64,000 nucleotides of DNA, taken from a virus. Shown piece after piece: positions 6,601-47,032 of this stretch. A program made the position numbers and the translations under genes. Numbering within the stretch: position 1 is the first letter of the stretch; every line of letters begins with the position of its first letter. The notes below the pieces were generated by a model. It searched no databases. It had not been told where the DNA came from and saw only the letters and a list, made by a program, of their open reading frames with translations. The stretch lies in IMG/VR virus record IMGVR_UViG_3300031718_000001, positions 101,086 to 165,085 of that record; one strand, 5' to 3'.

Positions 6601-6641
6601 CGTCCCGGCCCCGGAAGGGACGAGCATGAGGAGGGCTGCGT
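6601..6641 (+). promoter_or_regulatory. CCCCGGAAG leader with mini-ORF before sheath gene
   Basis: CGTCCCGGCCCCGGAAGG is followed by ATGAGGAGGGCTGCGTGA at 6626-6643. This five-codon frame (M-R-R-A-A) has a TGA that overlaps the GTG start of the sheath gene, a layout suited to translational coupling. Close copies of the leader occur before at least eight other virion or lysis genes. Confidence 0.45.
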
Positions 6642-8613
6642 GACCATTCCGAGCTTCACGACCTACCAGCCGCCTGGCACATACGTGCAGGATGTCAGCA
6701 CGGCGATCGTGGTGCCGACGCTTGTCCCGTCGCAGGTGCTGACCCTGGTAGGCCCGGCGCTGGGCTACCGCACCGCCGTCCAGTCGCTGCTGATCTCCGC
6801 CGGCACCCCGGTCGTGCTGACCTACATGGGCGTGTACACCACGGCCCAGCCGGGGCCGCCGCCGGTCTCGGCGCCGGTCGTGACGACGCTCACCGGCACC
6901 GTGCTGACCCCGGGTGTCGATTATGACCTGAGCACCGTGGCCGATCCGTCCGGCAACCCGGGGCTCGCCGTGACCTCGATCACCCGGGTGAACACGAGCA
7001 CGAACGTGTCCGACGGCCAGCAGGTCTCGGTCACCTACAACTACGCGGACGCCACGTACTTCCAGCCGCAGGTGTTCACCGATCCGCAGAGCGTTATCAA
7101 CGCCTACGGCCAGCCGTTCCTGACCACCGTCCCGCCGGGCGCGAACGCCTCGCAGGTCGCCAACCCGCTGTCGGCGGCGGCTCAGGTGGCTTTCGCCAAC
7201 GGGGCCACCACGCTGCTGTGCGTCGCGCTCAACCCGGCCAGCGGCAACCTGGAGGAGCAGTTCGAGGCCGCCTATTCCGCGGTCGCTACCCAGTCGGCGG
7301 CCACCATCGTCGTGCCGGTGTTCACCGATGACCTCAGCGTCAACTCGGGCACGGTCTCCGAGCTGTGCCAGACCCTGGCCCAGACTATGGACTCGGCGAT
7401 GTGGAGCGCCTACAACGACGGCTTCCCGCGCCAGGGGTTCTTCGGCTTCCCGCGGAACTACAGCGAGGCCGACGAGCCCATCCCGACCTTCGCCGGGAAC
7501 CTGGCCAGCCGCCGGACCATCCTGGCCTACCCCGAGATCGTCATGCTGTACAACAACTCGACGGGCCAGGCCTTCCAGGCGTCGGGCTGCTATCTCGCGG
7601 TCGCGCTCGGGGCGATCCTGTCCAGCCTGCCGATCGACACCGGCCTGACCAACCAGACGATCAAGGGATTCTCGGGCCTGACCCAGACCGAGCGCGCCAG
7701 CATGACCAACGCGTTCATGAACACGCTGGCCGCCTCGGGCGTGTCGGTGTGCTTCATCAATTACGCGGGCGCGCTCGTCTGCCGCCAGGGACTGACCACC
7801 GACATGTCGGCCCTGAACTACCAGGAGATCTCGATGGTCCGCCAGTCGGACTCGCTCCTGGTGGCGGTCCAGCAGGGCCTCCAGGGCAGCGGCCTGATCG
7901 GGCAGCCGATCACGAACAACACGATCACGGCCGTCCAGGAGGCGCTGCTCGGGGTGCTGGAGGCCGCAGTCACCAACAGCGTGATCCAGTCCTACACCAA
8001 CGTGTCGGTCACCCAGCAGACGTACCCCGGCGGCAGCCCGACAGTGATCACGGTCACCTTCAACTACCTGCCGGCCCTGCCGCTCAACTACATCACCGTC
8101 CAGATGTCGATTGACCTCTCGACCGGCCTGGTTGCCACCCAGAGCAACCAGAACGCCTCATCGACCGGCTCCAGCTCGTTAACCCAGGAGGTGAGGAGTA
8201 GTGGCGACCACCCAGGCACGGGTCGTAGGTTCCGGCTACACCGTCCTGTCCTACAATTCCCAGCCCATCGCGTACTGCGAGGGCTGGGAAGACTCAGGGC
8301 AGAGGGCTTTCTCGGACGTAGGCCAGCCCTATCAGTTCATTCAGCCCATCGGGGCCGAGCACCCGGTCGAGATCGCCACCTCACGCGTGATCTCCGGCGG
8401 CACGATCATGATCACGATCCGCGAGCTGTGGTCCCAGCCGGTCTGGTGGCAGCTCGCGGGCCTGGCCGGCACGTGGAACATGGTCGATATCTTCAACGCC
8501 CTGGCCGCCAACCCGAATTACGTCACTGCCAGCATGGTGATCAAGCCGCCGGGCACCGAGAACTCGCCCGGGAGCTGGCGCGGCAAGGTCTACCAGAACG
8601 TCACGGTAGTTGA
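6640..8613 (+). CDS. Contractile tail sheath protein
   Basis: GTG start at 6640. Residues 12-24 (PGTYVQDVSTAIV) and VGPALGYRT near residue 43 are typical of sheath N-termini. The C-terminal region around NYQEISMVRQSDSLLVAVQQ and PALPLNYITVQMSID fits the conserved sheath C-terminal domain that grips the tube. The normal protein end should be near residue 514. There the frame has TTA ACC, while TAA at 8180-8182 is present in the +1 frame. As sequenced, the frame instead runs another ~140 residues through the tail tube gene, with an Arg/His/Gly-rich shadow composition. A frameshift, or an indel in the sequence, is the likely explanation. Sheath identity is firm; the exact C-terminus is not. Confidence 0.85.
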   Translation: MTIPSFTTYQPPGTYVQDVSTAIVVPTLVPSQVLTLVGPALGYRTAVQSLLISAGTPVVLTYMGVYTTAQPGPPPVSAPVVTTLTGTVLTPGVDYDLSTVADPSGNPGLAVTSITRVNTSTNVSDGQQVSVTYNYADATYFQPQVFTDPQSVINAYGQPFLTTVPPGANASQVANPLSAAAQVAFANGATTLLCVALNPASGNLEEQFEAAYSAVATQSAATIVVPVFTDDLSVNSGTVSELCQTLAQTMDSAMWSAYNDGFPRQGFFGFPRNYSEADEPIPTFAGNLASRRTILAYPEIVMLYNNSTGQAFQASGCYLAVALGAILSSLPIDTGLTNQTIKGFSGLTQTERASMTNAFMNTLAASGVSVCFINYAGALVCRQGLTTDMSALNYQEISMVRQSDSLLVAVQQGLQGSGLIGQPITNNTITAVQEALLGVLEAAVTNSVIQSYTNVSVTQQTYPGGSPTVITVTFNYLPALPLNYITVQMSIDLSTGLVATQSNQNASSTGSSSLTQEVRSSGDHPGTGRRFRLHRPVLQFPAHRVLRGLGRLRAEGFLGRRPALSVHSAHRGRAPGRDRHLTRDLRRHDHDHDPRAVVPAGLVAARGPGRHVEHGRYLQRPGRQPELRHCQHGDQAAGHRELARELARQGLPERHGS

Positions 8614-8731
8614 CATCAACGACGGGGAAACCGTGACTGTCGGGGCGCTCGCAGTCACCAAGGGCATCACTGTCGCCTACACGCACTACCTGCCCCTCAA
8701 CTCCAACCAGTACGCCAACGCGAGCGGCTGA
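8201..8731 (+). CDS. Tail tube protein
   Basis: 176 residues from GTG 8201, with AGGAGGTGAGGAG immediately upstream. It follows the sheath gene, as tail tube genes of myoviruses do. The protein is mostly beta, with strands such as IMITIRELW and the C-terminal GALAVTKGITVAYTHY, and has a central helix. The phrase CEGWEDSGQRAFSDVGQP resembles the tube-protein loop region. It should form stacked hexameric rings inside the sheath. It overlaps the over-long sheath reading frame completely. The tube call rests on synteny and size, not on a search. Confidence 0.7.
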   Translation: MATTQARVVGSGYTVLSYNSQPIAYCEGWEDSGQRAFSDVGQPYQFIQPIGAEHPVEIATSRVISGGTIMITIRELWSQPVWWQLAGLAGTWNMVDIFNALAANPNYVTASMVIKPPGTENSPGSWRGKVYQNVTVVDINDGETVTVGALAVTKGITVAYTHYLPLNSNQYANASG

Positions 8732-37670: not shown

Positions 37671-37690
37671 CGGCCCCGGAAGGTATGTGA
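37671..37690 (+). promoter_or_regulatory. CCCCGGAAG leader before endolysin gene
   Basis: CGGCCCCGGAAGGTATGTGA; the same GGAAGGTATGTGA occurs at 5402-5414. GTG at 37687 is the endolysin start and lies only three bases after GGAAGG, while ATGTGA is a start-stop pair. Confidence 0.45.
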
Positions 37691-38778
37691 CCGGGACAGT
37701 TTCTTTCGTCGTTGACTGCGCGTCCTTCCAGGGCCGCCCCGACTGGGCTCGCGTCGCCGCGGTGTGCATCGGCGGGGCCGAGAAGGTCACCGAGGGCACC
37801 AGCTACATCAATCCGGAGTGGGCTGCTGCCAAGCCCGCCATGCAGGCCCTGCACGGCTTCACCCCGCTGGCTTACCTGTTCCTGGATGCTGTCGAGCCGG
37901 GGGCAGCCCAGGCCCGGTACTTCGCCCAGGCCGCCGGCGAGCTGACCGGTTTCGCCATCGTCGCCGACTTCGAGCGCGCCCCGAACGGCTCCCCCACGCT
38001 CGCCCAGGCCCAGGACGCCGTGGCCGAGCTGCGGCGCCTCTACCCGGGAACTCCCGTCGGCGGCTACTGCCCGCACTGGTACACGGGCGGCGAGGACCTG
38101 ACCTTCATCGACTGGCTGTGGGCCAGCGACTACGTGGACGGCTCCGGCGACCCGGGCATGCTCTACCCGCAGGTCCCGGCCTCCTGGTGGGCGCCGTACG
38201 GCGGCCGGTCCCCGCTGATGCTCCAGTTCACCTCCTCGGCGACCGTGGCCGGCATCGGCGGCCACGCGGACTGCTCGGCCTACCATGGCGACGCCTCGTC
38301 TTTCGCCGCGCACGTGCTCGCGGCATCGTCAGCTACCCCCGTGCTCAGCGAGGCCGCCGCCGGCCCGGCCGTCCGCACCGCGCAGAACCGGCTGAACGCC
38401 TGGGGCTCGCGGCTCACCGTGGACGGCGACTTCGGCGCGATGACCCTGGCGGCCGTCCGGTCCTTCCAGTCCGTCCGCAAGCTCAAGGTCACCGGGGTGA
38501 TCGAGGGGAGTACCTGGGCGGCCCTGCTGAAGGACGCGCCCTCCTCCGGCACTGCCGGGATACCGCGCACCCTCGCCCAGGGAGCTACCGGCTCGGCCGT
38601 GCGCACGCTCCAGGTCCGGCTGGACACGTGGGGCGCCAGGCTCGCCGTGGACGGCGACTTCGGGCTCAGGACCGAGATCGCCGTCCGGTCCTTCCAGCGG
38701 CAGCACGGGCTCCACCCGGATGGCATCGCCGGGGCGGCCACCTGGATCGCCCTGCTGAGGAAACCCCCGGCCAGGTAG
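37687..38778 (+). CDS. Endolysin: GH25 muramidase with two peptidoglycan-binding domains
   Basis: 363 residues from GTG 37687. The catalytic domain (residues ~1-205) starts VVDCASFQGRPDWARV with Asp10, and carries IVADFERA with Asp94 and Glu96, the acidic pair of GH25 muramidases. Two PG_binding_1 repeats follow at ~215-280 and ~290-360, each with a W-G-x-x-L-x-V-D-G-D-F-G core and V-R-S-F-Q. No signal peptide is present, so a holin or another route must deliver it. It cleaves the MurNAc-GlcNAc bond to lyse the host. No obvious holin lies beside it. Confidence 0.85.
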   Translation: MTGTVSFVVDCASFQGRPDWARVAAVCIGGAEKVTEGTSYINPEWAAAKPAMQALHGFTPLAYLFLDAVEPGAAQARYFAQAAGELTGFAIVADFERAPNGSPTLAQAQDAVAELRRLYPGTPVGGYCPHWYTGGEDLTFIDWLWASDYVDGSGDPGMLYPQVPASWWAPYGGRSPLMLQFTSSATVAGIGGHADCSAYHGDASSFAAHVLAASSATPVLSEAAAGPAVRTAQNRLNAWGSRLTVDGDFGAMTLAAVRSFQSVRKLKVTGVIEGSTWAALLKDAPSSGTAGIPRTLAQGATGSAVRTLQVRLDTWGARLAVDGDFGLRTEIAVRSFQRQHGLHPDGIAGAATWIALLRKPPAR

Positions 38779-38824: not shown

Positions 38825-39019
38825 ATGACCGTGCAGCCCGAGCGCGTGCAGCGCGAGTGCGATGAGTGCCACGAGGTGGACGACCAGCCGCACCACCAGG
38901 TGGTCGTGCCGGAGGAGGGCGGCCTGGTGATGTACAGCCGTCACTTCCGCTGCTGCGTGCGCGTCGGGTGCCCGGACGGAAGCTGCGTCACGATCCTGAA
39001 CAGGAGTGCAGGTGTCTAA
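38825..39019 (+). CDS. Small Cys/His-rich protein, probable zinc binder
   Basis: 64 residues from ATG 38825, with CAGGAGGACCC upstream. It contains RECDECHEVDDQPHHQVVV, then HFRCCVRVGC and SCVTI. Pairs of cysteines separated by two residues plus histidines suggest a small zinc finger. It lies between the endolysin and a beta-sandwich protein. Function unknown. Confidence 0.55.
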   Translation: MTVQPERVQRECDECHEVDDQPHHQVVVPEEGGLVMYSRHFRCCVRVGCPDGSCVTILNRSAGV

Positions 39020-39404
39020 CCTCGACCAGACGTTCAGCAACAAGCTGCTCAACGCCAGCGTTGGCGGGGCCTTCACTCCGCCGACCACCCCGATCACGTG
39101 CCGGCTGATGACGGCGAACGGCACGAACACCTCCAACGGCACCGAGCTGGCCACTTCGGGCGGGTACACCTCCGGCACGGGTGCTCCCCAGGTGACCTTC
39201 GCCGCTGCCTCCGGCGGGTCGGTGGCCTCCAACGTGGCCGTCACCGTCACCAACATGCCGGCCACGACCATTGTCGGGGTCGAGCTGTGGGACTCCGAGG
39301 GCACGCCGATCCGGCTGTGGTGGGGGCCGCTGACCGCCAGCAAGACCACCAATGCGGGCGACACGTTCACCATCGCGAGCGGGTCGCTCACCCTGGCGAT
39401 GTGA
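39012..39404 (+). CDS. Beta-rich small virion or lysis-cluster protein
   Basis: 130 residues from GTG 39012, chosen over GTG 39006 because CAGGAG is better spaced. The sequence is Thr/Ser/Gly-rich beta protein: LMTANGTNTSNGTELATSGG then VAVTVTNMPATTIVGVELWD and RLWWGPLTA. Similar proteins occur in many actinophages near fibre genes and are usually called minor tail or head-fibre proteins; I recall this rather than having checked it. It is followed by two further small genes. Confidence 0.6.
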   Translation: MSNLDQTFSNKLLNASVGGAFTPPTTPITCRLMTANGTNTSNGTELATSGGYTSGTGAPQVTFAAASGGSVASNVAVTVTNMPATTIVGVELWDSEGTPIRLWWGPLTASKTTNAGDTFTIASGSLTLAM

Positions 39405-39405
39405 C

Positions 39406-39669
39406 ATGGCGGAGAGCCCGACGACGCTGACCTACCCGCTGGAGACTTCCGCCGACCAGCTCAACGGCGGGAAGACCTTCAGCACGACCACCAACACCTG
39501 GGTGCCGGACGCGGGAGCCGTCGTCCTGGCGGACCCGGCTGCGGCTACCCGGGATCCGGGCGACCCCTATGAGTGCCAGCTCGCGGACGGCACCAGTGCC
39601 GGGTTCACGGACACGACGTATACCCTGACCGCCGCGCAGACCGCGGCCGGGAGCCTGATGGGGGCCTGA
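39406..39669 (+). CDS. Small hypothetical protein
   Basis: 87 residues from ATG 39406 (MAESPTTLTYPLETSADQLN); the upstream open frame is a shadow. It ends with a helix-strand region (TYTLTAAQTAAGSLMGA) and overlaps the next start (TGATG). Possibly a virion accessory protein, judged by its neighbours. Confidence 0.5.
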   Translation: MAESPTTLTYPLETSADQLNGGKTFSTTTNTWVPDAGAVVLADPAAATRDPGDPYECQLADGTSAGFTDTTYTLTAAQTAAGSLMGA

Positions 39670-39854
39670 TGGCACAGGTGGCTGCACAGGTGTCCCTGGC
39701 CGCGCAGCCCTTTCTGGCCTGCACGGTACTTGCCCAGCGGATCACCATAACCCCGGGTAACGTATCCCCCGATCAGATGGACACCTACGGCTCGCTCGTC
39801 CCTGAGCCCTACGTTGAGGTGCCCGGAGTCATCGACGGCATTTACAGCACCTGA
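39669..39854 (+). CDS. Small hypothetical protein
   Basis: 61 residues from ATG 39669, overlapping the previous stop by one base (MAQVAAQVSLAAQPFLACTV). The C-terminal half (TYGSLVPEPYVEVPGVIDG) is Pro/Val-rich. Co-translated with the preceding gene; function unknown. Confidence 0.5.
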   Translation: MAQVAAQVSLAAQPFLACTVLAQRITITPGNVSPDQMDTYGSLVPEPYVEVPGVIDGIYST

Positions 39855-39868
39855 ACCGGAGGTCTCCC

Positions 39869-40495
39869 ATGGCCCATGCCCAGTCCCTGCCCCCGACGGA
39901 TACCCAGTCCGGCCTGCCGTTCTTTGAGCGCGTCTCCCACGGCTACTCGATGCACCAGGTGGATGACTACATCCGCCAGGCGCTGGCCCGGCTGCATCAG
40001 CAGGAGCAGGATCTCCTCGGCCATGCCGAGCAGCTCGCGACCGCCGCGGTGCACAGCCCGCAGGCCGAGCAGATGATTGACGAGCTGATGAAGCTGGCAC
40101 TCGATGAGATCCTCGGCCAGAAGGCAGCCGCCATCACCGAGGCCGAGCAGTTCCTGTCGTCCGCCCGCCAGGAGGCGGAGCAGATCATCGCCGCGGCCAG
40201 GGACGAGTCGGAGTCCATGGTCTCGGGCGCCCGCGAGCAGTCCGGTTCGCTGCTGGCCGATGCCCGCAGCAGTGCCCGGAAGATGCTTGACGATGCCGCG
40301 AGCCGGGTGGATGAGGCCGAGCAGCACATCGCCGCGCTGGCCAGGACCCACGAGGAGACGCTCTCCCGCCTGGATGAGATCAGCCGGGTGACTACCCGGC
40401 TGCTCGGCTCGGAGCGCGAGCGCGGTCTGCCCGGGTCGGTGTCCGGCGCTGTCCAGGCGAACGCTCCGGCCCAGCTCCTGGCAGCCCCCGAGTAA
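39869..40495 (+). CDS. DivIVA-like coiled-coil protein
   Basis: 208 residues from ATG 39869 with GGAGGT upstream. Residues 18-43 (PFFERVSHGYSMHQVDDY then IRQALARL) match the DivIVA/Wag31 N-terminal membrane-curvature motif, F-x-x-x-x-x-G-Y-x-x-x-x-V-D-x-(F/Y)-(L/I). Residues ~45-185 are a long charged coiled coil (AEQFLSSARQEAEQIIAAAR). In actinobacteria DivIVA marks growing poles and hyphal tips and recruits wall synthesis and transfer machinery. A phage copy next to an FtsK/Tra-like ATPase could target that ATPase, or phage DNA, to the pole, or hijack tip growth. Both are inference; the motif itself is visible. Confidence 0.7.
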   Translation: MAHAQSLPPTDTQSGLPFFERVSHGYSMHQVDDYIRQALARLHQQEQDLLGHAEQLATAAVHSPQAEQMIDELMKLALDEILGQKAAAITEAEQFLSSARQEAEQIIAAARDESESMVSGAREQSGSLLADARSSARKMLDDAASRVDEAEQHIAALARTHEETLSRLDEISRVTTRLLGSERERGLPGSVSGAVQANAPAQLLAAPE

Positions 40496-40497
40496 AA

Positions 40498-40546
40498 GGG
40501 TGGCGGGCCTCCCCCGTAGCCCACGGTGAAAGCCCGCCACCCAGCT
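40498..40546. terminator. Bidirectional hairpin between DivIVA-like and FtsK-like genes
   Basis: GGGTGGCGGGC (from 40499) pairs with GCCCGCCACCC across a ~23-base loop. It stands between convergent genes. No T tract; still a good candidate terminator. Confidence 0.65.
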
Positions 40547-40586: not shown

Positions 40587-42554
40587 CTAAGCCGCCTGGT
40601 CATCCTGCTTCGGCCCGTACTTCCACCGGCTGTAGTCCGGGTTGTGCACGATGCCCTGGGTCTCGTCGTCCTTCAGCCACCGCTGGACGGTCTCCCGCGC
40701 GACGGTGATCTTCTCGTCGGCCAGCCACTGGTGGAGCTGGGCGGGGGTCGCGCCCCGGGCACCGCGGCCGGCGAGCAGCTCGCGCATCCGCTTCCGTGCC
40801 GGATGCAGCTTGCTCTCCGGGTCCTCGAAGCCGGCGACGATCGCCTCGAACTGGCTGGTGTCCACGTCGGCTACCGCGGTCGCCGTCCGGCCGCTGCCGC
40901 TGAACATCCGGGCCAGTGACGGCTGCTGGGCGGCGCGCACCCAGCGCTCGGTGTAGTCGCTGCCCAGCGAGTCGGCGGTGAGCTTGTCCAGCCGCGGCCG
41001 GATCGACCCGACATCCAGTGTGGTCTGGTAGACAGGGCAGCCGGCAACGCAGCCTTCGTTCTCGTTCTCGCTGCACTCACCTTCCAGGTGGTCGTGCAGG
41101 AAGAACTTGCTCATCATGGAGGCCTTGCGGCCGACCGCGGCCACGCCGACGCCGGGAGTGCTGGCCATCACCGAGAGCTGCTTCTGGGCCATGTGCGCGT
41201 CCGGGATGACATACCGCAGGTCTCCCTCGGTAGCCGCGCCCAGGGCCAGCCGCAGCTTGCACAGGGACTTGAGGTTGCCGCTGCCGGCGAAGTCCACGGT
41301 GCCCCGCTGGGTCGCCCAGATCGAGGTGACCGCTTCCGACCGGGCGAGCTGGACGCCCTCCTCGGCCATGTGGATGAACTGCCGGTTGGTGACGGCATCC
41401 TCGCCGACATCCTTGCGGGTGCCGCGGTCGCCGCCGAACAGGACCGACATCTCATCGCACAGCAGGATGATCTGGGGCATCGAAGCGCTCGGCGTGATCT
41501 TGGATCCGCCGATGCCGGAGTTCATCCTGGTCTCGATCGACTTCTTGAAGGCCGTCATCATGAGGGCGGCCTCCTCGCGGGTGGTGGCTACCCAGTCGAG
41601 CGCGGGCGCCTCGGCGTTGCCCTCGCACCAGGCCTGGAGCCAGGCCTTGACCGTCCGGCCGCCCTTCATGTCGATGGCCCAGATCACGGTGTCCACGCAG
41701 TAGGAGAGCTGCGCCAGGATCACGTTGATCAGGTTGCTCTTGCCGGCGCCCGTGGTCCCGACGATGTACATGTGCAGCTCGCGCAGCGAGATCTTCAGGA
41801 CCGTGCCGTCCTCCTGGACGCCGATCGCGAAGGGCTCGTTGACCGTGCTGGCGTGCAGTTCCTTCTTCAGCGTCGGCGAGTCGATGAGTACTTCATGCTC
41901 GCGCAGCCGCAGGATGATGTCGCCGGAGTGCTCGCCGATCGAGAACTCCACCGCGCCGGGCTTGAGCCGCAGGATGACCGCGATCTGCCCGGCGCAGCCC
42001 TCCAGGGTGGAGAGGGTGATCTTGCCTGACCGGGGGAGCTGGAGCCGGAGCACCCGGCCGGAGCGCTCGCTGGCCAGGCCCAGGACCTGGACGCCGGAGC
42101 AGCCGACCTCGCGGAACATGTGCTCGAACTTGGTCATCTCCTCCTGGAGGTCCTCCTCCGGCGGAGCGCCCGCGGTGAGTTCCTTCGGGGCCGCGGGCTG
42201 GTCGGGGACCAGCCCGGACAGCGCGGCGTGGGCCGAGAGCGGGGCGCAGATGATCATCCCGATGATCCACGCGGTGACCACCCCGGAGTCCCACAGGCGG
42301 GTCATCTCGGCCCACAGGGTCCACAGGCCGAGGTAGAAGCCGAAAAAGGCAATGAATGACGAGATCGCGCCGCGGCCTGTGGACGCCCACACCGACAGGG
42401 CAATGACGATGCCGAGCATCATCTCCACGAGCGGCATAAGCCACAGCGGCAGGCCCGTGCCGGGGAGCACGGCCACGGCTGCGAGCGCGAGGGAACCCAG
42501 GAGGACGACCGTCTCCACGGCGTGCTCCCAGATCCTGCGCTTCTTGTGGCTCAA
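40587..42554 (-). CDS. Membrane-anchored FtsK/SpoIIIE (Tra)-type DNA translocase
   Basis: 655 residues from TTG 42554, which has GGGAGA upstream. The N-terminal ~115 residues hold about four hydrophobic helices. The motor domain has Walker A GTTGAGKS (residues 266-273), Walker B QIILLCDEM (361-369) and a Q-R-G-T sensor region (SIWATQRGT). The last ~70 residues (RMRELLAGRGARGATPAQLHQW, VARETVQRWLKDDE) look like a winged-helix module, comparable with the DNA-recognition gamma domain of FtsK and TraB. Such ATPases pump double-stranded DNA across membranes; Streptomyces plasmids use one for conjugation between mycelia. Divergent from the DUF2637 gene across an iteron-rich control region. Confidence 0.8.
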   Translation of the reverse strand: MSHKKRRIWEHAVETVVLLGSLALAAVAVLPGTGLPLWLMPLVEMMLGIVIALSVWASTGRGAISSFIAFFGFYLGLWTLWAEMTRLWDSGVVTAWIIGMIICAPLSAHAALSGLVPDQPAAPKELTAGAPPEEDLQEEMTKFEHMFREVGCSGVQVLGLASERSGRVLRLQLPRSGKITLSTLEGCAGQIAVILRLKPGAVEFSIGEHSGDIILRLREHEVLIDSPTLKKELHASTVNEPFAIGVQEDGTVLKISLRELHMYIVGTTGAGKSNLINVILAQLSYCVDTVIWAIDMKGGRTVKAWLQAWCEGNAEAPALDWVATTREEAALMMTAFKKSIETRMNSGIGGSKITPSASMPQIILLCDEMSVLFGGDRGTRKDVGEDAVTNRQFIHMAEEGVQLARSEAVTSIWATQRGTVDFAGSGNLKSLCKLRLALGAATEGDLRYVIPDAHMAQKQLSVMASTPGVGVAAVGRKASMMSKFFLHDHLEGECSENENEGCVAGCPVYQTTLDVGSIRPRLDKLTADSLGSDYTERWVRAAQQPSLARMFSGSGRTATAVADVDTSQFEAIVAGFEDPESKLHPARKRMRELLAGRGARGATPAQLHQWLADEKITVARETVQRWLKDDETQGIVHNPDYSRWKYGPKQDDQAA

Positions 42555-42928: not shown

Positions 42929-44056
42929 ATGACCGCCACGGAATCCGTCAAGGCAAACTGGCGTGCATACGCTGCGGCTATCCCCGTGGTCTTTGTCAAC
43001 ACGACCGCGTTTATCGGCCAGTTTGCTTTCCTCCAGGCCCACGTGCGCTGGATTATCCCGGGCATCGTCCTGATTGCCGTCTCGATCGAGAGCGTCGGCA
43101 TCTACTACGCCTTTCACGCCCACCTGGCGATGCTGGCCAACGACTCCGCGATGCGCCTCAAGCTGGCTGCCTACTCTTTCGCGGCCGTGATCGGCGTCAT
43201 GAACTACAGCCACTATGCGGCGCCGCACTGGCGGCCGACCGCGCTGGCCGTGATCATGCTCATCGCCTCGTCCATCTCGCCCTGGCTGTGGGGCGTGCAC
43301 TCACGCCGTGCCAGCCGCGACAAGCTGATGGCACGCAAGCTGGTCGATGAGCACGCTGTCCGGCTCGGCGCCAATCGGTGGACGTGGCACCCGGCACGCT
43401 CGATCCGCGTGACCCGCTGGTCTGCCTGGCACGGCGTCAACGACCCGGCACGCGCCATCGCCCACTTCGCTGACCGGTACGGCACGGCCGACACGGATCC
43501 CGGCGCGCTGGACCGGGCAGCGCTGCGCGTGCCAGCCGCTGTGCCAGCCAGCGAGCCAGAGGCTCTTCCGCTTGGCGCGGCCGTGGCACACGCCATCGAG
43601 AGCGTGCCAGTCGCTGCGGCGGCCATTTCCCCCGTGGCACAGGCCGTGCTCGGCGCGGGTGGCACGCTGGCGAACGGCCCGGCGGCCGTCGTTCCCGAGC
43701 CAGCCGCACAGGTGCTCTCCGCTGATGCCCACCTGGAGGCCGAGGCCAGCCTGTCCGGAGGCAAGCCCACGGCGGAGACCATCGCGAGCGTCGAGCTGTG
43801 GCTGATGGGCGTCGGGCTCGATGACCTGCCCTCTGTCCGCGCCGTGGCGCGGAAGCTGGGCGACCAGAACCAGCGTCGCCTGGCCAGGAAGCTGCTGGAT
43901 GCCCGCGTGGCAGCCGGTACCTCGTTCGTCTCGGCACCCCCGAGCGGACAGATCAATGCCAGCGGGAGCCGCACCCAGGTCAGTGACCAGGGCAACGGAC
44001 TGATCGCCTCCCCGCTGGCCTACCGCCCAGGAGGTGTAAATGGCGGAGACAACTGA
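42929..44056 (+). CDS. DUF2637-like four-TM membrane protein (plasmid spread type)
   Basis: 375 residues from ATG 42929 with GAGGAGG upstream. Four hydrophobic helices lie within the first ~120 residues (IPVVFVNTTAFIGQFAFL, IIPGIVLIAVSIESVGIYYAF, YSFAAVIGVMNYSHYA, ALAVIMLIASSISPWLWGV). A basic W-x-W-H-P segment and RWSAWHGVNDP follow, then a Pro/Ala-rich linker and a C-terminal helical domain (LDDLPSVRAVARKLGDQNQRR). This matches the DUF2637 type of membrane protein common on Streptomyces plasmids, where such proteins help plasmid spread. It overlaps the next gene by 17 bases. Its 3' half begins the TGGCAC repeat cluster. Confidence 0.7.
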   Translation: MTATESVKANWRAYAAAIPVVFVNTTAFIGQFAFLQAHVRWIIPGIVLIAVSIESVGIYYAFHAHLAMLANDSAMRLKLAAYSFAAVIGVMNYSHYAAPHWRPTALAVIMLIASSISPWLWGVHSRRASRDKLMARKLVDEHAVRLGANRWTWHPARSIRVTRWSAWHGVNDPARAIAHFADRYGTADTDPGALDRAALRVPAAVPASEPEALPLGAAVAHAIESVPVAAAAISPVAQAVLGAGGTLANGPAAVVPEPAAQVLSADAHLEAEASLSGGKPTAETIASVELWLMGVGLDDLPSVRAVARKLGDQNQRRLARKLLDARVAAGTSFVSAPPSGQINASGSRTQVSDQGNGLIASPLAYRPGGVNGGDN

Positions 44057-45455
44057 GGAGGCAGAGCTGCCGCCGCAGCCCGCTCATCAGGGAGAATACC
44101 GGCGGTCCCCCGCGTCGCGATGGCGGCGCCGGGGGACCGCCAGTGGCTTGCTGACGGCTGGCGGCAGTCTCATGCTTCACATGCTAGGAGGGCCTATGTC
44201 CCTCCTGATCGGCGGCGGCGTGGTGCTCGCCGGAGGAGGCGGGCTGGCCCTGTGGCACCTGCCGAGGATCCGTCACCACCTCAATGACGGCCGCCGGGAG
44301 AAGAAGACCCGCACCAGGACCCGCACCCGCGGGAGCCGGGGCGGGTCACGCGGTGCCAGGGCGGGCCGGGGCGGCCGGCTGTTCGGGGGAGCTGGCACGC
44401 GCCGGGGTGGCACGGCACGCTCTCCTCTGGGCGGCCGTGCCAGGGGTGGCACGGCACGCCGTGCCACCGGGCCGGGTCGCGGGCGTGCCAGCGGCACAGG
44501 AGCCCGGCGCGCTGGCGCGGCACGCGGGCCGCTGGCACGGCGCGCTGGCACGGGCCGTACCGGCACGAGGTCTGGCACAGCGCTCAGGCGGCGCGGTGGC
44601 GCGGCACGTTCCGGGGCTGGCACGGCACGCCGCCGGTCTGGTGGCACGGGAGCGGGGCGCCGCTTCGGACGTACCGCGCCGGCACGCGCCGGCACGCGGT
44701 TCCGTCCCGGCTCGCGCCGGGGCGGGGCATACGGCCGCCGTGGCACAGCGGGCAGCCGCTGGCGTCGCGGTCCAGGTGGCCGGCACGGCCGGACTCGTCC
44801 CGGCAGCCGGGCTCGTCCGGGCGGCCGGGGTACGCGGGCGTACGGACGCCGGTTCGGCATGTTCGGCCGTCGCCGGTCGATGCCGCCGCCCAGGATGCGC
44901 GCTCGCCGGACCAGGAGCGGCCGGGGTGCCGGCTCAGGCGGCGGTCGCCGTCTGGGCTCGGGCCGAAGGATGGGTCGCCGCCGGTTCCTGCTCTTCGGCA
45001 AGCGCAGGCCGGTACGTGCCAGGGTGCGGCGCCCGGCAGCTCATGGCCGGGGCCGGCACGCGGCTGGCGCGCGGTCGAGAATGGGCCGGTTCCGTGCCGC
45101 GCGCTGGCGCCTCCGCAGGCCTCCGGGCAAGTGGATCCCCCGGTTCCGGCGCACCAGGAGTGGCACCAAGCCGATCCGGATGAAGACCGACTTCCGTCGC
45201 GTCCGCGCGATGGGACGCCGGTACCGGCGTGCCAGGTCGCATCTGGGCCGCGCCAGGCGCAGGTTCCACGCTGCCCGGCGCAGGCGTGCCACCTGGCGTG
45301 TCACGCGCCGGTTCTTCCACCGGCTCACCCCCGCCGGCATGCGAGCCAGGCTGGCACGCCGGTTCGGGCACCGGGTGCGGACACGCCGCATGGGAAGGCG
45401 CATGGGCGGCGCGATACTAGGTTCCTTGCTATTCTGGAAATGGCACAGGAGGAGG
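43330..45455. repeat. TGGCAC/GTGCCA motif cluster embedded in coding DNA
   Basis: About 29 copies of TGGCAC or GTGCCA were counted by eye over ~2.1 kb, against one or two expected at this base composition. They run through two genes, in both orientations and more than one reading frame, so amino-acid composition alone does not explain them. They could be recognition sites for the adjacent FtsK/Tra-like ATPase. Confidence 0.65.
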
Positions 45456-46004
45456 CGGGCACCAGGTCGGCACGGCGCTGGCGCAAAGCCAGCCACGCCT
45501 GGCGTGAAGTACCGGATCCGGCCTCCGGGGCCAGACCCGCACGACAGCTCAATGCCTCGTCCGGCAGCGGCAGCGGGTCACCGGGAGCCGTTCCCGGGCC
45601 GGTTCGGTGTACCGACAGGGACCAGCTACCCTGCACGACCATCAGGAGGACACAGTTCCATGGCATCACCAATTCAGGATGCGGCCGAGGCCGTTACCGC
45701 GGGGTTCGCCGGGTTCCACCCGGAGAACGCCGCGCAGCTCCGCGGCATGTTCGACGACATGCCGGGGTTCTTCGAGGAGCTGGCCAGTGGCGTAGCCCGG
45801 CTGGCCGAGAAGTTCGACTCGGAACTCCCGGTTGACCGCAGGGTCGCCGAGGGCGTCCGGGAGATGGTCAGCGCGCTAGCCGGCCTGGGCGACCAGGCCA
45901 ATGAGCTGAACGGCCTGTTCAAGGCTGCCCACGAGACCGAGCTGAAGCGGCTCGACGAGCCGCGTCCGCAGGAGGAACTCTGGGACGTGCGCAATAACGA
46001 GTAG
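44040..46004 (+). CDS. Very Arg/Gly-rich membrane-anchored protein with a separate C-terminal helical domain
   Basis: 654 residues from ATG 44040 (AGGAGGTGTAA upstream). Residues ~36-75 are hydrophobic and Gly-rich (GLLTAGGSLMLHMLGG, SLLIGGGVVLAGGGGLALW) and probably span the membrane. Residues ~85-470 are almost entirely Arg, Gly, Ala, Thr and Ser, an extraordinarily basic region able to bind DNA without sequence specificity. Residues 541-654 form a normal acidic helical domain. AGGAGG at 45643-45648 before ATG 45660 suggests that this domain is also made alone. The protein lies between the DUF2637 and ArdC genes, so a role in handling DNA at the membrane is inferred. The homolog family was not recognised with certainty. 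Confidence 0.65.
   Translation: MAETTEEAELPPQPAHQGEYRRSPASRWRRRGTASGLLTAGGSLMLHMLGGPMSLLIGGGVVLAGGGGLALWHLPRIRHHLNDGRREKKTRTRTRTRGSRGGSRGARAGRGGRLFGGAGTRRGGTARSPLGGRARGGTARRATGPGRGRASGTGARRAGAARGPLARRAGTGRTGTRSGTALRRRGGAARSGAGTARRRSGGTGAGRRFGRTAPARAGTRFRPGSRRGGAYGRRGTAGSRWRRGPGGRHGRTRPGSRARPGGRGTRAYGRRFGMFGRRRSMPPPRMRARRTRSGRGAGSGGGRRLGSGRRMGRRRFLLFGKRRPVRARVRRPAAHGRGRHAAGARSRMGRFRAARWRLRRPPGKWIPRFRRTRSGTKPIRMKTDFRRVRAMGRRYRRARSHLGRARRRFHAARRRRATWRVTRRFFHRLTPAGMRARLARRFGHRVRTRRMGRRMGGAILGSLLFWKWHRRRRAPGRHGAGAKPATPGVKYRIRPPGPDPHDSSMPRPAAAAGHREPFPGRFGVPTGTSYPARPSGGHSSMASPIQDAAEAVTAGFAGFHPENAAQLRGMFDDMPGFFEELASGVARLAEKFDSELPVDRRVAEGVREMVSALAGLGDQANELNGLFKAAHETELKRLDEPRPQEELWDVRNNE
45660..46004 (+). 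CDS. Probable internal-start product of the 44040 gene (C-terminal domain alone)
   Basis: In-frame ATG 45660 has AGGAGG 11 bases upstream and gives 114 residues (MASPIQDAAEAVTAGFAGFH). The domain is helical and acidic, ending RPQEELWDVRNNE. I recall similar small proteins in Streptomyces plasmid transfer regions, but this was not checked. It could regulate or cap the full-length protein. Listed separately because the ribosome site is clear. Confidence 0.5.
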   Translation: MASPIQDAAEAVTAGFAGFHPENAAQLRGMFDDMPGFFEELASGVARLAEKFDSELPVDRRVAEGVREMVSALAGLGDQANELNGLFKAAHETELKRLDEPRPQEELWDVRNNE

Positions 46005-46096: not shown

Positions 46097-47032
46097 ATGA
46101 CAAGGAATCGTAAGGACAGCAGGACCTCCTCGTTCGCCGCCGCCAAGGCAGCCCGGATCAGCGAGCTGACCGACCAGCTTTCCGCCGGCATCCAGGACCT
46201 TTCCACGACTGAGACGTGGCGGGACTACCTGGACTTCCAGGCCAAGTTCCCCCGCTATTCCTTCGGCAACGTGATGCTCATCCTGTGCCAGCTCCCGAGC
46301 GCCAGCATGGTGATGCCGTACGGCAAGCCGGGTAAGCCGGGCACCTGGATGAGCATCGGCCGGCACGCCAGGACCGGCGAGAAGGCCCTGTACATCCGCA
46401 AGCCGTCCATGCGGAAGATCGCCGCCGAGGACTCGGCCGACGGCCAGGAGCACATGGTCCGCAGCTTCGTCTGGGTTCCGGTCTTCGACGTATCGCAGAC
46501 CGACGGCGACCCCATCCCCGAGAACGGCGTGCAGCTCCTCGACGGCGACGACCCAGACGGCATCCTCGCCCTGGTCGTGAAGTTCATCGAGTCGCACGGC
46601 CTGGCCGTCGAGTTCGTCCCCGAGATCCCCGGCAGCAGCGCGAACGGCGACTGCGCCCCCGGAAGGGTCCGGGTCTGCACCTCCGGCCGCACCCCGCTCC
46701 AGCAGGTCAAGACGGCCATCCACGAGGCAGCCCACATGCTGCTGCACCTGGACTCGATCCTGTCCCGCGGGCTCGAGGAGCTCGAAGCCGAGTCGGTCGC
46801 CTATGTGGTCGCCCAGTACCTCGGCCTCCAGACCAGCGAGTACAGCTTCGGCTACGTGCTCGGCTGGGCCGGCGGCGCTGATCGCGCCGGCAAGGCGATC
46901 AGGGAGTCCGGCAACCGGATCCAGGACGCCGCCAAGAAAATCCTCACCGGGCTCGGCGCGATCGAGGCTGCCGGGTACGACGAGCCGGCCGCCGGCTCCG
47001 CGCCCGTCCTCGAAGAGGCTGTGGCCGCATGA
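46097..47032 (+). CDS. ardC: ArdC-type antirestriction protein
   Basis: 311 residues from ATG 46097. The N-terminal domain (W-x-x-Y-L with FPRYSFGNVMLILCQLPSAS, then PGTWMSIGRHARTGEKALYI) is the ssDNA-binding DUF1738 domain of ArdC. The C-terminal zincin has HEAAH (His209, Glu210, His213) and a later E-A-E-S-V-A-Y (Glu232) as third ligand. ArdC proteins on conjugative plasmids protect incoming DNA from restriction. Here the gene follows a transfer-like operon but has its own promoter without a leader, suited to immediate expression after entry. It overlaps the next gene by ATGA. Confidence 0.8.
   Translation: MTRNRKDSRTSSFAAAKAARISELTDQLSAGIQDLSTTETWRDYLDFQAKFPRYSFGNVMLILCQLPSASMVMPYGKPGKPGTWMSIGRHARTGEKALYIRKPSMRKIAAEDSADGQEHMVRSFVWVPVFDVSQTDGDPIPENGVQLLDGDDPDGILALVVKFIESHGLAVEFVPEIPGSSANGDCAPGRVRVCTSGRTPLQQVKTAIHEAAHMLLHLDSILSRGLEELEAESVAYVVAQYLGLQTSEYSFGYVLGWAGGADRAGKAIRESGNRIQDAAKKILTGLGAIEAAGYDEPAAGSAPVLEEAVAA

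What the first reader, a model, noticed from the sequence alone, without database searches (positions are those of the whole stretch)
39869..40495. Phage-encoded DivIVA-like protein
The N-terminal G-Y-x-x-x-x-V-D signature and long coiled coil are clear. DivIVA organises tip growth in filamentous actinobacteria. A phage protein of this type could redirect tip growth, open a site for DNA movement or position the neighbouring motor. It is the last gene before a bidirectional hairpin and the ATPase gene.
Basis: partly seen in the sequence, partly recalled or inferred. Interest (0 to 1): 0.7.

Follow-up and report, generated by a model that had tools for sequence, protein, structure and literature searches.

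The report
Phage-encoded DivIVA-like coiled-coil protein
A large soil phage of actinobacteria and four relatives carry a small, diverged copy of DivIVA, the protein that marks the growing tip of these bacteria, beside their late lysis and virion genes; this suggests, without proving it, that they interfere with the host's growing tip late in infection.

Summary
ORF 39869-40495 (208 aa) has the F-x5-GY-x4-VD head and a long coil. It scores 36 bits against Pfam DivIVA (cut-off 28). The window is part of a 165-kb myovirus distantly related to mycobacteriophage cluster C. All five phages of the group that cover the locus carry the gene in the same place. At 28-39% identity the five F/G/Y/V/D residues are invariant. 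A profile built only from the phage head recovers DivIVA-domain proteins from actinobacterial genomes. Its closest cellular counterparts are small DivIVA-domain proteins of other actinobacteria; its coil most resembles the second coil of canonical DivIVA. No relative was found in 50,697 phage records or 72,556 plasmids.

The gene is last in a tightly packed run (endolysin, fibre genes) and is convergent with a TraB/FtsK-like ATPase. The 'motor positioning' idea is weak: five other phages with homologous ATPases lack any DivIVA gene. The layout (head plus second coil, no intercoil) matches an experimental minimal DivIVA that makes hyphal tips burst. My best reading is a late effector that joins the host's polar DivIVA assembly. 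This is inference; localisation, membrane binding, partner and host genus are untested.

The parts
39869..40495 (+). DivIVA-like coiled-coil protein, 208 aa
   Evidence: Pfam PF05103 36.4 bits; orthologues in four other phages
39914..40048 (+). DivIVA-like head and first coil (residues 16-60); F19, G25, Y26, V31, D32 invariant in five phages
40049..40420 (+). break with conserved Ser-Pro (63-64) then long coil to residue 184, most like the second coil of canonical DivIVA
   Evidence: NCBIfam Wag31 match residues 54-169 to model 98-210; 28.3 bits to Streptomyces DivIVA against at most about 1 for heptad-preserving shuffles of the same protein; AlphaFold helix 64-184
40498..40542 (.). hairpin between the convergent genes, terminator-like; only in this phage of the five
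   Evidence: gaps in relatives
37687..38778 (+). endolysin (GH25 plus peptidoglycan-binding repeats), in the same-strand run that ends with the DivIVA-like gene
   Evidence: Pfam and PHROGs
38825..39019 (+). small Cys/His-rich protein, conserved at this place in relatives
   Evidence: reading
39006..39404 (+). head decoration / fibre-like protein (Gp80-like, PHROG 240)
39573..39854 (+). short protein ending PGVIDGIYST, gene directly before the DivIVA-like gene (14 nt gap; ATGA overlap in two relatives)
40587..42554 (-). FtsK/TraB-like membrane ATPase, convergent neighbour
   Evidence: PHROG 31069 3e-30, NCBIfam plasmid_TraB 5.5e-8, below cut-off, Walker A GTTGAGKSN
42929..44056 (+). multi-pass membrane protein paired with the ATPase; homologue of Keanu gp91

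Best explanation
It is a small, diverged DivIVA-domain coiled-coil protein, most likely taken long ago from an actinobacterial host and kept by a group of large myoviruses. It is probably made late, with endolysin and virion fibre genes. I infer that it self-assembles through its coil and mixes with the host's polar DivIVA assembly as a minimal DivIVA (head plus second coil, without the intercoil region). It would thereby disturb or weaken the growing pole at the end of infection and help lysis and release. Shown: identity, conservation, domain layout, gene position. Inferred: late expression, pole localisation, mixing with host DivIVA, weakening of the pole.
For: DivIVA identity. Closest cellular counterparts are small DivIVA-domain proteins with a similar head and layout (L146, L164). 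The coil scores best against canonical DivIVA's second coil, far above heptad-preserving shuffles, and much lower against FilP. Position: last gene of a tight co-directional run after endolysin and fibre genes, with a 4-nt start/stop overlap with the fibre-like gene in two relatives. Precedent for the effect: an experimental DivIVA of only N-domain plus second coil gives wide hyphae and frequent tip bursting (PMC12585849). Precedent for the target: mycobacteriophage Fruitloop gp52 binds host DivIVA (PMC7474061). DivIVA-like proteins with such heads (FilP, SepIVA) interact with DivIVA (PMC11571769).
Against: No expression, localisation or binding data. In the tip-bursting experiment the minimal DivIVA replaced the wild type; mixing with it was not tested. 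The basic residue before GY, present in 27 of 29 distinct cellular signatures, is kept in 2 of 5 phage proteins, so membrane binding may be lost. The Phe-Arg pair that inserts Bacillus DivIVA in the membrane (known from memory) is not present. The host genus is unknown, so polar growth of the host is assumed.
Confidence: 0.37

Rival explanations
1. Adaptor for the neighbouring TraB/FtsK-like ATPase: the protein brings the phage DNA translocase and its membrane partner to the hyphal tip or septum so that phage DNA can move between compartments, as conjugative TraB with Spd proteins does.
For: Adjacent in 5 of 5 covered phages; best NCBIfam match of the ATPase is plasmid TraB; TraB assembles at growing hyphal tips and with Spd proteins at septa (PMC5133688).
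Against: Convergent genes, not one run; collinearity explains the adjacency; five other phages with homologous ATPases lack DivIVA, and one of them, Keanu, also has the membrane partner; no TraB-type clusters of 8-bp repeats except one inside an Arg/Gly-rich gene.
Confidence: 0.18
2. Virion or assembly protein: a coiled-coil head-fibre, scaffold or ejected protein that re-uses a DivIVA head for self-assembly only.
For: Overlaps a fibre-like gene by 4 nt in two phages and follows decoration/fibre genes in the same run.
Against: The DivIVA head residues are strictly kept; no match to any structural PHROG above noise; Mycobacterium phage Alice and Rhodococcus phage Finch, whose sheath genes are related, lack the domain.
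Confidence: 0.2
3. Superinfection exclusion: it poisons or masks the host DivIVA-dependent pole so that other phages cannot enter, as Fruitloop gp52 does with Wag31.
For: Fruitloop gp52 precedent (PMC7474061).
Against: The gene sits with late genes, whereas exclusion genes are usually early or lysogenic (general knowledge); gp52 was not compared here with this protein.
Confidence: 0.12
4. Generic alanine-rich coiled coil with a chance GYxxxxVD; not DivIVA.
For: Weak similarity to many coils; one relative scores below the Pfam cut-off in a genome search; PDB fold search gives nothing.
Against: Invariance of the signature in five diverged phages, reciprocal retrieval of DivIVA proteins, shuffled controls.
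Confidence: 0.04

Closest known systems
   Same: Similar length, N-terminal tail then F-x5-GY-x4-VD head, then an alanine-rich coil; profile match probability 95-97%
   Different: Cellular ones have RRGYD at the turn and a shorter linker; the phage ones have GY[HS] and a conserved Ser-Pro block before the second coil
Canonical DivIVA of Streptomyces / Wag31
   Same: Head signature and second coil (NCBIfam Wag31 E 5.7e-9; coil 28 bits)
   Different: 36 bits against an equivalog cut-off of 260; no intercoil or long C-terminal tail; lacks the longer TVRLREGY loop; 208-244 aa against about 390
FilP and Scy (polarisome coiled-coil proteins)
   Same: DivIVA-like head without the loop insertion, then coil
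   Different: Phage coil is much shorter and scores 6-9 bits against FilP
Minimal DivIVA construct (N-domain plus second coil, PMC12585849)
   Same: Same two-part layout and similar size (construct about 186 aa)
   Different: Engineered; phage protein has its own head sequence and no proven pole targeting
Mycobacteriophage Fruitloop gp52
   Same: Phage protein acting on host DivIVA (PMC7474061)
   Different: Described there as a DivIVA-binding protein; sequence not compared here

Membership tests
DivIVA domain family (Pfam PF05103) | Sequence score above curated cut-off | tested here: met
   36.4 against 28 bits; one relative reaches it with 28.2, others lower in genome searches
DivIVA domain family (Pfam PF05103) | N-terminal F-x5-GY-x4-V signature | tested here: met
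   Invariant residues in five phages; one relative has two extra residues between F and GY
DivIVA domain family (Pfam PF05103) | Coiled coil after the head | tested here: met
   AlphaFold helices 28-60 and 64-184
DivIVA domain family (Pfam PF05103) | Crossed head dimer fold bound to membrane | not testable with these tools
   Monomer model only; Foldseek uninformative
Canonical polar DivIVA / Wag31 orthologue | Equivalog score (NF050102 cut-off 260) | tested here: not met
   36.2 bits
Canonical polar DivIVA / Wag31 orthologue | Basic residue directly before GY | tested here: inconclusive
   His in this protein; R/K in 27 of 29 distinct cellular signatures and 2 of 5 phages, but Streptomyces DivIVA itself has Glu there (REGY)
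FilP | FilP-type long rod coil | tested here: not met
   208 aa; coil 6-9 bits against FilP
Polarisome component | Localises to the pole with host DivIVA | not testable with these tools
   needs microscopy

The most novel reading that the evidence does not exclude
A group of actinobacteriophages uses its own minimal DivIVA to take over the host polarisome late in infection, so that cells burst at the growing tip (a polarity-based lysis aid), and possibly to dock a TraB-like DNA pump at the same place.
Probability: 0.2. Interest if true: 0.8.

Novelty: new variant of a known kind. Interest (0 to 1): 0.52.

Why it matters
Phage proteins that bind DivIVA are known; a phage that carries its own DivIVA-like protein was not found in 50,697 phage records or in the open literature searched. 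If it acts at the pole it would be a natural probe of how DivIVA assemblies are built and broken, and would give filamentous actinobacteria a polarity-based step in lysis or DNA spread. It is also directly testable with one gene in laboratory Streptomyces or Mycolicibacterium smegmatis.

Tried and rejected
tblastn in phages and plasmids: none for the phage proteins. Canonical DivIVA against phages hits only unannotated Listeria and faecal records, which I take to be host DNA (not checked further). The one-protein scan of viral contigs and the 3-sequence scan of genome contigs found nothing. PDB sequence and fold searches gave only coil noise. Descent from FilP was considered because the head lacks the loop insertion; disfavoured by the coil. 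The motor link was tested by looking for DivIVA in phages with the ATPase: absent in 5 of 5. Absence from G004 is not a loss: that contig ends just after the lysin. TraB recognition-like 8-mer clusters: one, inside a coding repeat.

Full report
What the window is. The window is bases 101086-165085 of a 165,085-base IMG/VR virus record. It carries a contractile-tail module (sheath, chaperone, baseplate), a DnaE-type polymerase, primase, a UvsX-like recombinase and an endolysin. The sheath is about 27% identical to mycobacteriophages such as Alice (Ceeclamvirinae; cluster C from my own knowledge) and about 26% to Rhodococcus phage Finch. The polymerase and the ATPase are closest to Streptomyces phages. 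The virus is therefore most likely an actinobacterial myovirus of unknown host genus. A cluster of 38 tRNA genes lies upstream of the window.

The observation. ORF 39869-40495 encodes 208 aa with a ribosome site GGAGG. Pfam DivIVA matches at 36.4 bits, cut-off 28. In NCBIfam the best model is Wag31 DivIVA, E 5.7e-9, matching the coil, far below the equivalog cut-off of 260 bits. Because coiled coils give spurious matches, I tested the head separately.

Relatives. Scans of viral contigs with the ATPase, the DivIVA-like protein and the tail sheath gave five related phages. Four carry the DivIVA-like gene next to the ATPase gene. The fifth, 3300047585_000133, ends right after the lysin, so the locus is not covered. 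In the five proteins (this one and four relatives, 28-39% identical to this one) F19, G25, Y26, V31 and D32 are invariant; the chance of that, given 25 invariant columns out of 191, is 2.6e-5. All five match Pfam DivIVA and NCBIfam Wag31 at E of 0.01 or better. A caution: in the genome searches only some relatives reach the Pfam cut-off.

Reciprocal test. A profile of the phage N-terminal 80 residues alone was searched against 396 Actinomycetota genomes. Reading the 30 new loci, 29 encode a protein with the GY signature in the expected place; the exception is a frame without it. Two of the most similar in overall layout by profile alignment, L146 and L164, are small proteins (frames of 260 and 252 aa) with the same head-then-coil plan (95-97% probability). 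The phage coil (residues 61-190) scores 28 bits against Streptomyces DivIVA, where heptad-preserving shuffles of that protein reach at most about 1 bit (up to 5 for the other canonical copies), and 6-9 bits against FilP. So the head resembles accessory DivIVA-domain proteins and the coil resembles the second coil of canonical DivIVA.

Differences from cellular DivIVA. The residue before GY is Arg or Lys in 27 of 29 distinct cellular signatures, but in the phages it is H, G, R, G, R; the residue after GY is mostly Asp in cells and Ser or His in phages. Streptomyces DivIVA itself has Glu at the first position but a longer basic loop. Membrane binding is therefore uncertain. AlphaFold predicts a short turn at the signature, a helix 28-60, a break at the conserved Ser-Pro and a helix 64-184 (mean pLDDT 74). 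The fold search was uninformative, as expected for a lone helix.

Genomic setting. The gene is last in a same-strand run: SNF2 helicase, small protein, endolysin, Cys/His protein, Gp80-like decoration/fibre protein, short fibre-like protein, DivIVA-like. In two relatives it overlaps the fibre-like gene by 4 nt. It faces the ATPase gene tail to tail: 91 nt apart with a strong hairpin here, -4 to +1 nt apart in relatives. The ATPase is FtsK/TraB-like with membrane segments and a Walker A motif, and is paired with a membrane protein; both have homologues in Streptomyces phage Keanu. None of five phages with homologous ATPases has a DivIVA match. The adjacency alone is thus weak evidence for a working link.

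How it may work. Three published facts bear on it. A DivIVA reduced to head plus second coil supports walled growth but gives wide hyphae and frequent tip bursting (PMC12585849). [quoted passage not shown]). Phage Fruitloop gp52 binds Wag31 and blocks a DivIVA-dependent phage (PMC7474061). From this and the late position I infer a polar effector that mixes with host DivIVA and weakens or remodels the pole around lysis. Rivals are an adaptor for the TraB-like pump (TraB works at tips and septa, PMC5133688), a virion protein, or superinfection exclusion. None of these is excluded.

Novelty. No relative was found in 50,697 phage records or 72,556 plasmids by tblastn, and paper searches found no phage-encoded DivIVA-like protein (open-licence papers only). 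The domain is known; its presence as a conserved phage gene beside late genes appears new. I call it a new variant of a known kind.

Noticed in passing
40587-42554 (-) and 42929-44056 (+): TraB/FtsK-like membrane ATPase paired with a multi-pass membrane protein; both have homologues close together in Streptomyces phage Keanu (gp94, gp91), and the next Arg/Gly-rich gene has one in Thermobifida phage P1312. A recurring actinophage module of unknown role.
   Followed up: partly
6640-8613 and 8201-8731: The tail sheath ORF has no stop codon at the end of the sheath and runs about 412 nt into the next ORF (tail-tube-like by position) in another frame; the overlap seems kept in relative 3300036790_000425.
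   Followed up: partly
L007:7300-16873 (record 87300-96873, upstream of the window): Cluster of 38 tRNA genes covering most amino acids.
   Followed up: no
44040-46004: 654-aa Arg/Gly-rich protein with one predicted membrane segment; four copies of TGGCACGG within 117 bp inside the gene.
   Followed up: no
38825-39019: Small Cys/His-rich (zinc-like) protein between endolysin and fibre genes, conserved in the relatives read.
   Followed up: no
46097-47032: Protein with a match to an anti-restriction PHROG (7245, E 3e-8).
   Followed up: no
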